A stretch of DNA of 64,000 nt from Xenorhabdus griffiniae (GTDB lineage Bacteria > Pseudomonadota > Gammaproteobacteria > Enterobacterales > Enterobacteriaceae), in NCBI RefSeq assembly GCF_037265215.1, contig NZ_CP147737.1:4682001-4746000 (forward strand), written 5' to 3'. Position numbers and translations under genes: made by a program. Below, one piece after another: positions 12,640 to 16,533 of the stretch. Numbering within the stretch: position 1 is the stretch's first letter; every line of letters starts with the position of its first letter. The notes beneath the pieces were generated by a model. That model saw nothing but the letters and a program-made list of their open reading frames with translations, searched no databases and was not told where the DNA came from.

Positions 12640-13143
12640 TTAATCCCGCAATAACGCACCTGGATAACCCAGCTGCCGCCATGCTTCGAACACAACCACT
12701 GCCACAGAATTGGACAGATTCATGCTACGACTATCTGGCAGCATAGGAATTCTGATTTTCTGTTCAGTTGGCATGTTATCTAACACATAAGATGGTAAGC
12801 CACGAGTTTCAGGGCCGAACATCAAATAATCACCATCACGATAACTCACACTACTGTGTGCTGGAGTGCCTTTTGTGGTTAAGGCAAATAGGCGCGCTCC
12901 AATAGGAGATTGTGAATTGACGGAACTGAGTCCTTCACTTTCCAGGAATGCATTGTAATCGTGGTGTTGTTTGATATTGGCAAACTCATGGTAGTCTAAC
13001 CCCGCACGACGCAAGCGTTTGTCGTCCCATGTAAAACCTAAAGGTTGAATGAGATGAAGCTGACAGCCTGTGTTGGCACACAGGCGGATGATGTTGCCTG
13101 TATTAGGCGGAATTTCTGGTTCGAATAGGACGATGTTTAGCAT
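12640..13143 (-). CDS. trmL: tRNA (cytidine(34)/uridine(34)-2'-O)-methyltransferase
   Basis: TrmL (YibK) is a SPOUT methyltransferase that methylates the wobble ribose of tRNA-Leu. The 167-aa protein has the knotted SPOUT core: NTGNIIRLCANTG, LMFGPETRGLP and IPMLPDSRSMNLSNSVAVVVFEA. Its ATG overlaps the stop codon of licC (13137-13143, ATGCTAA), so it is the last cistron of the phosphocholine/O-antigen run. In E. coli it sits next to cysE, so the surface-polysaccharide locus is inserted just upstream of it. Confidence 0.96.
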   Translation of the reverse strand: MLNIVLFEPEIPPNTGNIIRLCANTGCQLHLIQPLGFTWDDKRLRRAGLDYHEFANIKQHHDYNAFLESEGLSSVNSQSPIGARLFALTTKGTPAHSSVSYRDGDYLMFGPETRGLPSYVLDNMPTEQKIRIPMLPDSRSMNLSNSVAVVVFEAWRQLGYPGALLRD

Positions 13144-13832
13144 GGTTTAATTAAATTGTTACAGATGTAGTTGTAATTTTCTACAGTATCCATTTCTGCT
13201 GCGTGTGTTTTTTCTACTAAGAGTGTACCAACATCTATTTTGTCTAATAGGGATATTGGTATATTATCCCAATAAAGTTTACTATTTTTTAATGTATTAT
13301 GATCAAGATATTTAGGTAGTTCTTTTTTAATAAGAGCACATGCAGAAGTATTCCAGTAAGATATACCGAGAAGAGATGGTGCATTAGTGTTACTGACTTG
13401 CATGCTCTCAATTATGCCATGATTATTTAATATAGGAATCCATTCTTTATTAGAACTCTCTGGTCTTTCAATAACATAATAAGTGCTTTTTTTTAGTGAA
13501 ACTAAAATATTTTTTAACAATACAACATCAGCATCTATAACTATAGAATCATTAAAAAATCCAGAGGCTAATTTGAAAGATTGTATGCTATTGTAATCTG
13601 CATAATTTGGGTTATGAATCAAATTGCATTGATATTTGTCTCTTAGATAATCGAATAAATGAGCCATATGACCAGTAACTATATGAATCTCATTCACATT
13701 AACATCATTCAGATATTGTATGGTGCGTTCAATATTCGGTATTCCATTTATAGGAAGAAGAGCTTTATGGTTGTTTGTTGTCAGCTCTTTAAATCGAGAG
13801 CCTAAACCTGCAGCTAAAATTATTGCATTCAT
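13137..13832 (-). CDS. licC: LicC-like CTP:phosphocholine cytidylyltransferase
   Basis: LicC converts phosphocholine and CTP to CDP-choline, the donor for LicD. The 231-aa nucleotidyltransferase starts with LAAGLGSRFKELTTNNHKALLPING (residues 6-30), including the Gly-rich loop and Lys23. It has the metal-binding IDADVV at about 99-104 and an NSIQS segment where LicC proteins have the choline-site N-x-S motif. The frame overlaps licB by 4 bp upstream and trmL by 7 bp downstream. A generic sugar nucleotidyltransferase is the alternative, but the licDABC context argues for phosphocholine. Confidence 0.82.
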   Translation of the reverse strand: MNAIILAAGLGSRFKELTTNNHKALLPINGIPNIERTIQYLNDVNVNEIHIVTGHMAHLFDYLRDKYQCNLIHNPNYADYNSIQSFKLASGFFNDSIVIDADVVLLKNILVSLKKSTYYVIERPESSNKEWIPILNNHGIIESMQVSNTNAPSLLGISYWNTSACALIKKELPKYLDHNTLKNSKLYWDNIPISLLDKIDVGTLLVEKTHAAEMDTVENYNYICNNLIKPC

Positions 13833-14791
13833 TTGAGAGATAATCTTAATTTTTTTAGATCACGAGGGTTAACGACCGTTAGAAATGAACCTAAAGAAAC
13901 ACCTGAGCATATAAATAATAAATTTACAGATATGGGCTCGCCTATAATTAGATATGAAAAGAATATTGCCCATATAGAATAGGTTATATTTAGAGCCATC
14001 GCTCTGATCGGACGTAATTTTTCTATAGCACGATAATAAAAAAGGTAGGATGCTGTTGCAGCTAAAGAAGTTGTAAATAGTAAAGTAGATAATTTAATAT
14101 CTGAAAAAATATGTATTACTCCTGGAAAGGAGTGAATGAAGACTATGATAAGAATAAAGTAGCCCAAGGAAGATGATAATTGCCTTATAAAATAAGCAAT
14201 ATCCGAAGGAATGTTTTTATTCATGCCGTAAGAACTGATTACAACTTCGGCACCCCAGCCCAAAGCACATAAGAAAGCAAAAAGGAATCCTATTTCTCTT
14301 CCTCCAGAGATAACTTGAGTAGAGGCTGAATAACCTAAGGCCATTGTACATACTATGGCTAATAGTAAACCTAATAGTCCTATTTTATGGATTCTATCTT
14401 TAAGCAGACAAAACGATATTAAGGTGCCAATCGCTGGATATAATGCGGAAATGGTTGCAGTATATCCTATACCAATATTTTTTATTGCTAAAATATAAAA
14501 AGACATTCCCATAGGACCGCCAAATATAGCGGCTATAGAGATAATTAAGTTATTTTTTTCTTTGAAAATGGACAATATTGCTTTCTGATTTTTTTTGTAT
14601 AGTAAATAAAAAATCATATATACTAACGAAATTGAATCATTAAGAAATGCAATGATTATAGGAATAATAAAAAAAGAGGCAAGAGTATTATCTTTTAATA
14701 CTAAAGCTAAAAGAACTCCGCTTAATCCCCAGAAAATGCCAGATAATAACCCATGGAAATTAGCCCATAATTTTTGGTATTCATTAAGCAT
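13829..14791 (-). CDS. licB: LicB-like choline permease (EamA/DMT family)
   Basis: The 320-aa hydrophobic protein has about ten transmembrane helices in two EamA-type halves (first half ending near residue 150). LicB proteins import choline for surface phosphocholine synthesis in Haemophilus and relatives. The Gly-rich first helix LLSGIFWGLSGVLLALVL and the GYTATISALYPAIGTLISF stretch are typical of this DMT group. It overlaps licA (8 bp) and licC (4 bp), so it is translated as part of the same unit. Choline as substrate is inferred from the neighbours. Confidence 0.8.
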   Translation of the reverse strand: MLNEYQKLWANFHGLLSGIFWGLSGVLLALVLKDNTLASFFIIPIIIAFLNDSISLVYMIFYLLYKKNQKAILSIFKEKNNLIISIAAIFGGPMGMSFYILAIKNIGIGYTATISALYPAIGTLISFCLLKDRIHKIGLLGLLLAIVCTMALGYSASTQVISGGREIGFLFAFLCALGWGAEVVISSYGMNKNIPSDIAYFIRQLSSSLGYFILIIVFIHSFPGVIHIFSDIKLSTLLFTTSLAATASYLFYYRAIEKLRPIRAMALNITYSIWAIFFSYLIIGEPISVNLLFICSGVSLGSFLTVVNPRDLKKLRLSLK

Positions 14792-15609: not shown

Positions 15610-15717
15610 TTATTGTTTTTTTTCTAAATTTAATATATTTCTAATTAGTTCATCTATATCTTTAGTGTTTTCAATCACGCAGTAAACTTCCCAGACTTCT
15701 TTGTTTTTGAAATTATA
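15610..15717 (-). pseudogene. Out-of-frame N-terminal segment of licA, or remnant of a LicC-LicA fusion
   Basis: The minus-strand frame from 15717 reads VWEVYCVIENTKDIDELI and onward to LNLEKKQ, then stops at TAA 15610-15612 immediately after the A8 tract (15616-15623). Removing one A joins it to the licA frame at NNKINISLLGGMTN, the expected N-lobe of choline kinase. The part before about residue 15 also resembles the tail of cytidylyltransferases, as in LicCA fusions known from Treponema. A possible GTG start at 15678 has GGGAAG about 9 bases upstream. Confidence 0.55.
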
Positions 15718-15825
15718 TCATACTTTAACAAGTAGAATAATTATTTTTTATTATCTTTAAGCCACTCCCTAAAGAAGTGGTTATTGAAATTTTTATTAAT
15801 AATTTTGATAAATAAGATTATTATG

Positions 15826-16533
15826 TTAATACAAATAGTATTTACCAACACCGATTGGTTTAGTATAAGAATATTTGTCAGGGATGTATTCAGTTTCTAT
15901 TACTGGTTTCATAAAGTCAGTTCCGTAGTAGTTGGTTAAATATTCTATAGTGTTTTTGGGTATAGAAAAAACTCTTCCTTGAAATTCAAAATCTGTTAGT
16001 TCAAATTGAGGACAATAATTTTGGAAGGTAATACATGTGCCTTCTTTGATATTATTATTCATTATAGGGTCGTCAAATTTTCCAAAATGATGACAAATCA
16101 TATGGTCATTTTGGGGTTGATAGAAAAATATATCAACTTGAACACCTTTGAAAGAATAAGTTAATTCAAGAGCTGTTATTCCATCTTTTTTTTCAAATTT
16201 CTTTATTTTTTTAAATCCTTTTTTTATTAGCGACGCTTCTACTTCACTAGAAAAATCTGATAAATACATACCAAAATCTAGATCATTATCATGTTCTATA
16301 AAATTATTTTCTCTTATGGCGCCAAGTAAAGTTCCCCAATCAAGCCAAAAATTTTTGTTAATGTCATTCATGGCTTCTTGGAACGCATATAATGCAGAAA
16401 GATTATATTTATGGTACCTTTTATTTCTTTTTACTTCTTTTTCATAAGTAAAAATAGATGGAATTAGAATATATCTAACATATCTAATATATGCATTTTT
16501 ATTTAAATATTCTTTTATTTCTTTAATTGCCAT
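15826..16533 (-). CDS. licD: LicD family phosphocholine transferase
   Basis: LicD proteins transfer phosphocholine from CDP-choline to a sugar of LPS or other glycans. The 235-aa protein has the family core WLDWGTLLGAIRENNFI (about 63-79) and HDNDLDFGMYLSDF (81-94), where the spaced Asp residues bind metal in the nucleotidyltransferase-like fold, and a conserved VQVDIFFY stretch. It is the first lic gene as transcribed, separated from licA by about 240 bp. Base composition is very AT-rich, like the rest of the cluster and unlike trmL. Confidence 0.88.
   Translation of the reverse strand: MAIKEIKEYLNKNAYIRYVRYILIPSIFTYEKEVKRNKRYHKYNLSALYAFQEAMNDINKNFWLDWGTLLGAIRENNFIEHDNDLDFGMYLSDFSSEVEASLIKKGFKKIKKFEKKDGITALELTYSFKGVQVDIFFYQPQNDHMICHHFGKFDDPIMNNNIKEGTCITFQNYCPQFELTDFEFQGRVFSIPKNTIEYLTNYYGTDFMKPVIETEYIPDKYSYTKPIGVGKYYLY

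What the first reader, a model, noticed from the sequence alone, without database searches (positions are those of the whole stretch)
13137..16533. Complete licDABC phosphocholine pathway inside an O-antigen operon of a likely nematode/insect symbiont
Seen: four minus-strand genes read as LicD-, LicA-, LicB- and LicC-type proteins with their diagnostic motifs, and licA-licB-licC overlap each other. Established: in Haemophilus lic1 these genes import choline, make CDP-choline and transfer phosphocholine to LPS; nematodes carry abundant phosphocholine on their own glycans. Inference: if this is a Xenorhabdus-like symbiont, phosphocholine on O-antigen could mimic the nematode surface or be seen by insect immunity. 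The unit sits at the distal end of a Wzx/Wzy cluster.
Basis: partly seen in the sequence, partly recalled or inferred. Interest (0 to 1): 0.85.

Follow-up and report, generated by a model that had tools for sequence, protein, structure and literature searches.

The report
Phosphocholine gene cassette, one gene broken
A Xenorhabdus bacterium carries, at the end of its surface-polysaccharide genes, a four-gene set for attaching phosphocholine to that polysaccharide, but the choline-kinase gene is broken in the sequence as read, so the decoration may be off in this strain.

Summary
The genome is a Xenorhabdus; the genes lie between cpxA and trmL/cysE/secB, the O-antigen site that also holds lic genes in Proteus mirabilis O18. 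Two corrections. (1) The set is not complete as sequenced: licA is split between two frames, and the listed 266-aa ORF lacks the N-terminal helix, first strand and both P-loop glycines that relatives keep. The remaining codons are still under strong purifying selection, so the break is recent, reversible or an assembly error. (2) It is not a genus trait: full-length LicC is in 3 of 30 Xenorhabdus genomes, a tail beside trmL in 2, and absent from the same-species genome. X. lircayensis has a broken licB instead; X. mauleonii has a full but dispersed set. Unexpectedly, two other Xenorhabdus keep LicB in this locus with an unrelated cytidylyltransferase-kinase fusion. Best reading: a known kind of system (phosphocholine O-antigen), not found reported for this genus in the papers searched, exchanged between strains and repeatedly broken. 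Nematode mimicry is untested.

The parts
15826..16533 (-). licD, 235 aa, LicD-family phosphotransferase (predicted phosphocholine transferase)
   Evidence: PF04991 43.2 bits; NCBIfam Mf1 46.5 bits, below its cut-off of 225; only 7 hits in the protein database; GTLLG...HDxDxD residues invariant in 7
14784..15584 (-). licA as listed, 266 aa from an ATG; lacks the N-terminal part
   Evidence: PF01633 81.1 bits; 4r77 9e-57, query 1 = chain 48
15613..15678 (-). upstream piece of licA in another frame, from a GTG at 15678 to a stop, resembling the N-terminus of intact LicA proteins
   Evidence: three-frame reading; X. stockiae and X. lircayensis N-termini; DNA alignment
13829..14791 (-). licB, 320 aa, choline transporter of the EamA family
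   Evidence: 7b0k LicB 7.3e-39; PF00892
13137..13832 (-). licC, 231 aa, CTP:phosphocholine cytidylyltransferase
   Evidence: 1jyk 4.1e-35
12640..13143 (-). trmL-like gene at which the cassette ends (name recalled)
   Evidence: homology to the same-species genome ends at 13143
16810..17724 (-). IS630-family transposase in two pieces, upstream of licD
   Evidence: NCBIfam transpos_IS630 on both pieces, 122.7 and 36.6 bits against a cut-off of 100
18418..36287 (-). rest of the polysaccharide locus: wbaP-like, manB-like, manC, glycosyltransferases, wzy-like, hexapeptide transferase, wzx-like, epimerase, rmlC, rmlA, rmlB (broken), with IS remnants
36590..37966 (-). cpxA, the other boundary of the locus
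   Evidence: NCBIfam CpxA 742 bits

Best explanation
licDABC is a horizontally exchanged cassette at the trmL end of the Xenorhabdus O-antigen locus. LicB imports choline, LicA phosphorylates it, LicC makes CDP-choline, and LicD moves phosphocholine onto a sugar of the lipid-linked O-unit before export. In the sequenced strain licA is frame-broken near its 5' end, so the pathway is probably off or much reduced; the break is recent. Shown: gene identities, order, site, the frame break in the assembly, patchy distribution, and breaks in relatives. Inferred: the chemistry, the acceptor, the exchange at trmL, and the off state.
For: Family and structure matches. Same site and the same licABC overlaps as P. 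mirabilis O18. Cassette 28.8% G+C against 42.8% for the window. Same-species genome G060 matches at 97.7-98.0% up to base 13143 and then has an unrelated gene. Licht traces in relatives: LicC tails at trmL in 2 of 30 genomes; licB in two frames in X. lircayensis; LicD relative in pieces in G190. Second, decayed trmL copy flanking the cassette in X. lircayensis. dN/dS of licA 0.09, like licC and licD. P-loop position and mutant data on LicA (PMC4364537, passages).
Against: No biochemistry. The 266-aa ORF keeps Thr29 and all later motifs and is under purifying selection, so it might work. rmlB in the same locus is also broken, which could mean local assembly trouble or decay of the whole locus. 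LicD is remote from any characterised transferase. wzy and wzx calls are weak.
Confidence: 0.6

Rival explanations
1. licA is phase-variable: slippage in the A-rich stretch near its 5' end turns choline phosphorylation on and off, as repeats in licA do in Haemophilus (recalled); the assembly caught the off state.
For: The frames part in an A-rich stretch at the 5' end; the X. lircayensis licB break is also in an A-rich stretch; no decay of licA. In a first-order Markov null 4 A-runs of 8 or more in the module are reached in 4.5% of 2000 simulations.
Against: With protein and codon use kept, 3 such runs inside the ORFs are reached in 52% of 2000 shuffles. No short-unit repeat in licA. The X. 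stockiae proteins differ in sequence at this place.
Confidence: 0.15
2. The frame break is an assembly or sequencing error and the pathway is intact.
For: A homopolymer is where such errors fall; two breaks (licA, rmlB) in one locus; no decay of licA.
Against: Flanking DNA aligns to the same-species genome over 12,439 columns with one gap base, including two runs of eight T at 7144 and 8820. That comparison does not cover the O-antigen locus itself.
Confidence: 0.15
3. The 266-aa protein from the internal ATG is the real, working LicA.
For: Purifying selection; NCBI annotates X. lircayensis LicA from the same Met (P0002).
Against: It lacks alpha1, beta1 and the P-loop glycines; the X. lircayensis frame is open further upstream; the full-length relatives inspected (P0003-P0008, P0066, P0096) have the N-terminal part.
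Confidence: 0.07
4. LicD here transfers another group, or the acceptor is not the O-antigen.
For: LicD is an isolated subfamily (7 hits); nearest solved fold is FKRP, not a phosphocholine enzyme (model mean pLDDT 65).
Against: licD directly precedes licABC here and in X. lircayensis, inside a polysaccharide locus, and it is the only PF04991 protein in the genome.
Confidence: 0.1

Closest known systems
Proteus mirabilis O18 phosphocholine O-antigen locus (PMC8027243: parts 1-2 of 5 of the text and passages seen)
   Same: Site between cpxA and secB; licABC overlapping one another; licD in the same locus; Wzx-type cluster.
   Different: There licD overlaps wzx and is apart from licABC; here licD directly precedes licA. 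Phosphocholine is chemically shown there, not here. licA is broken here.
Haemophilus influenzae lic1 (recalled; survey in PMC10434233, section 5)
   Same: Same four activities.
   Different: Acceptor there is lipooligosaccharide; gene order licABCD; repeat-driven phase variation (recalled), no such repeat here.
Morganella morganii O1 zwitterionic O-chain with a Lic-1 locus (named in PMC10434233)
   Same: Phosphocholine O-antigen and Lic-1 locus in a related genus.
   Different: Locus not compared here.
X. lircayensis, X. stockiae and Photorhabdus hindustanensis homologues
   Same: LicA in one clade with the window's (support 95/91); LicD of X. stockiae and X. lircayensis 70-81% identical.
   Different: X. 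stockiae has two LicA and two LicD proteins, LicA of full length; X. lircayensis has licB broken and licA open.

Membership tests
Lic-1 phosphocholine pathway | Choline kinase LicA | tested here: inconclusive
   Family and structure match, but frame-broken at the 5' end
Lic-1 phosphocholine pathway | Choline transporter LicB | tested here: met
   7b0k 7.3e-39
Lic-1 phosphocholine pathway | CTP:phosphocholine cytidylyltransferase LicC | tested here: met
   1jyk 4.1e-35, residues 2-223
Lic-1 phosphocholine pathway | LicD transferase | tested here: met
   PF04991 over its cut-off; specificity not shown
Lic-1 phosphocholine pathway | Phosphocholine on a surface glycan | not testable with these tools
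   needs 31P NMR or antibody
P. mirabilis O18-type O-antigen locus | lic genes between cpxA and secB with overlapping licABC | tested here: met
P. mirabilis O18-type O-antigen locus | licD overlapping wzx | tested here: not met
   licD lies 241 bases before the licA ATG and far from the wzx-like gene
Haemophilus-type phase-variable licA | short-unit repeat array at the licA 5' end (recalled) | tested here: not met
   no such array; only an A-run

The most novel reading that the evidence does not exclude
In Xenorhabdus the cpxA-trmL locus is a switchboard for choline-bearing surface glycans: the transporter LicB is kept while two unrelated activation modules, LicA+LicC or a single cytidylyltransferase-kinase fusion, replace each other and are repeatedly gained and broken. 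Of 30 genus genomes, the 5 with LicB are the 3 with full LicC plus the 2 with the full fusion. The fusion would be a one-protein route from choline to CDP-choline for surface decoration.
Probability: 0.35. Interest if true: 0.65.

Novelty: new member of a known kind. Interest (0 to 1): 0.45.

Why it matters
PMC8027243 states that only P. mirabilis and M. morganii have phosphocholine on O-antigens. The genes in Xenorhabdus, patchy and in places broken, give a natural strain set (unbroken X. mauleonii, broken relatives, a same-species genome without them) for asking whether phosphocholine helps or hurts a bacterium that lives in a nematode and kills insects. The searches made found no paper on lic genes in Xenorhabdus (open-licence PMC papers only).

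Tried and rejected
Unrelated nucleotidyltransferase for LicC: rejected. A-run enrichment as a sign of selected phase variation: marginal against a Markov null, absent against a synonymous shuffle. Haemophilus-type repeats: none. Generally poor assembly: weakened by the flank comparison. Promoter and terminator scan: 27 and 4 sites against 25.5 and 2.9 in shuffles, not used. LicD model: mean pLDDT 65.2; 13 of the 14 PDB matches at E 0.001 are FKRP, TM 0.44-0.48 of the query; weak support only. LicC in the family: 21 of 246 genomes match at E 0.001, only 3 of them strongly (this one, G199, G257). LicA in 60 relatives: 43 match, 3 strongly. LicD relative P0124 in the family: 7 of 392 match, strongly only this genome and, in pieces, G190. 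Relative rates: LicA of the window is as close as or closer than X. lircayensis LicA to 4 of 4 outgroups; LicD is closer to 1 of 3 and less close to 2 of 3. Paper searches seen as listings only and not followed: (of the and 58 listings three papers were opened). Search for the fusion with Photorhabdus: 0 papers. X. stockiae DNA was not at hand, so its tract is unknown.

Full report
What is there. Four minus-strand ORFs lie at 13137-16533, in transcription order licD, licA, licB, licC, then the trmL-like gene, which overlaps licC. Against the PDB, LicC matches S. pneumoniae CTP:phosphocholine cytidylyltransferase over residues 2-223 (4.1e-35; next entry 6.9e-12). LicB matches one entry, the LicB transporter 7b0k (7.3e-39). 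LicA matches S. pneumoniae choline kinase (9e-57). LicD passes the Pfam LicD cut-off (43.2 against 22.6 bits) and is the only PF04991 match in the genome.

The set is not intact as sequenced. The licA ORF begins at chain residue 48 of the S. pneumoniae LicA entry, which is Met28 if the tag is left out (my count). Passages of PMC4364537 place the P-loop at Gly26-Asn31 between beta1 and beta2, after helix alpha1, so the ORF lacks alpha1, beta1 and two glycines, and keeps Thr29 and the later motifs. Codons resembling the missing part lie upstream: a stretch from a GTG at 15678 runs to a stop, while the codons before the ATG at 15584 continue in another frame. X. lircayensis licA is open through this stretch (301 aa; DNA alignment), and the full-length LicA proteins inspected from X. 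stockiae (two), Photorhabdus hindustanensis, Hamiltonella, X. mauleonii and Providencia have the N-terminal part. The frames part in an A-rich stretch near 15613-15623.

Is the break old? A Nei-Gojobori script gives dN/dS between window and X. lircayensis of 0.092 for licA (266 codons), 0.107 licC, 0.093 licD and 0.126 for 223 codons of licB, against 0.059 gpsA, 0.044 cysE and 0.016 trmL (synonymous divergence is high, so these are rough). Against 4 outgroup LicA proteins the window copy is as close as or closer than the X. lircayensis copy; for LicD the window copy is less close to 2 of 3 outgroups. So licA shows no decay. Phase variation could explain this, but A-runs are no commoner than protein and codon use predict, though a Markov null is reached in only 4.5% of simulations, and there is no short-unit repeat. 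Assembly error is possible: rmlB in the same locus is broken too. Against it, 12,439 aligned columns of flanking DNA to the same-species genome hold one gap base, but that does not cover the locus itself.

Where it lies. From cpxA the locus runs rmlB, rmlA, rmlC, an epimerase, a wzx-like gene (one NCBIfam hit far below cut-off), IS remnants (named by eye), a hexapeptide transferase, glycosyltransferases, a wzy-like gene (named from recall; no family hit), another glycosyltransferase, manC, a manB-like gene, wbaP, an IS630 remnant, licDABC and trmL. An rmlB paralogue (72%, open frame of 362) lies elsewhere in the genome. P. mirabilis O18, whose O-antigen carries phosphocholine, has overlapping licABC and a licD beside wzx between cpxA and secB (PMC8027243). 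The same site and overlaps make the O-antigen the likeliest acceptor (inference).

How it moves. The cassette is 28.8% G+C against 42.8% for the window. The same-species genome G060 is 97.7-98.0% identical, in two blocks with about 0.9 kb of extra DNA between them in G060, up to window base 13143, the first base of trmL; it then has a Polysacc_synt_2 gene and no LicB, LicC or LicD match anywhere. LicD is in 3 of 30, one only 33% identical. X. lircayensis has a second trmL copy, 89.7% identical over 505 bases and cut short by a stop, on the far side of licD, as expected if the cassette was added by recombination at trmL (inference). It also has licB in two frames. The unnamed same-family genome G190 has a LicD relative in pieces with stops. 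X. mauleonii has the four genes open but dispersed: licA (46%; nearest in the tree to Providencia rettgeri) near cpxA, licD (33%) between wzx-like and wzy-like genes, and licB-licC (76% and 80%) at trmL, with a Sulfatase-family gene whose best NCBIfam hits are phosphoethanolamine transferases below their cut-offs just before licB.

An unexpected variant. LicB relatives are in 5 of 30 genus genomes. In G006 the LicB and the fusion lie on different contigs. In the genus scan 30 of 30 genomes match the fusion at E 0.001, but only these 2 over its length; the rest match one domain. The protein search gave 24 hits, 18 with E below 1e-40, named ones being X. bovienii, Photorhabdus, Arsenophonus, Photobacterium and Vibrio. 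Whether it acts on choline or ethanolamine is unknown, and no LicD-type transferase was found in G001 or G006 with the window's LicD as query.

Mechanism and verdict. Choline enters by LicB (a BCCT-family transporter is also present), is phosphorylated by LicA, activated by LicC and transferred by LicD to a sugar of the O-unit: inferred from family membership and position throughout. In this strain the kinase step is probably missing or reduced. The kind of system is known. Its presence in Xenorhabdus was not found in print: 13 and 3 papers hold Xenorhabdus with phosphocholine or phosphorylcholine (listings only), 0 with licD, 3 with the five-term query, and PMC10434233 mentions neither Xenorhabdus nor Photorhabdus in its main text. 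Mimicry of the nematode surface remains an open idea; patchiness and breakage would also fit selection by insect immunity or phages (inference).

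Noticed in passing
L089:6160-7281 and L091:1168-2313 (X. szentirmaii, X. koppenhoeferi O-antigen loci): Fusion of a CCT/ECT-like cytidylyltransferase with a choline/ethanolamine kinase, in genomes that have LicB but no LicC; a possible unrelated replacement of LicA and LicC.
   Followed up: partly
L022:2087-2591: Second trmL copy with an early stop on the far side of the X. lircayensis lic cassette, 89.7% identical to the intact one.
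   Followed up: partly
L025:12526-14067: Sulfatase-family protein resembling phosphoethanolamine transferases directly before licB in X. mauleonii.
   Followed up: no
L058 (G199): licA-licB-licC followed by a second nucleotidyltransferase and a PEP mutase gene, suggesting a phosphonate beside choline.
   Followed up: no
window 35334-36287: rmlB is frame-broken near its C-terminus; a paralogue with an open frame is elsewhere in the genome.
   Followed up: partly
window 24218-24936, 29286-30944: Transposase remnants scattered through the polysaccharide locus, recognised by eye from the ORF list.
   Followed up: no
window 39548-64000: P2-like prophage near cpxP: integrase, gpA replication protein, terminase, and a PAPS-reductase-domain protein at 44551-45558.
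   Followed up: no
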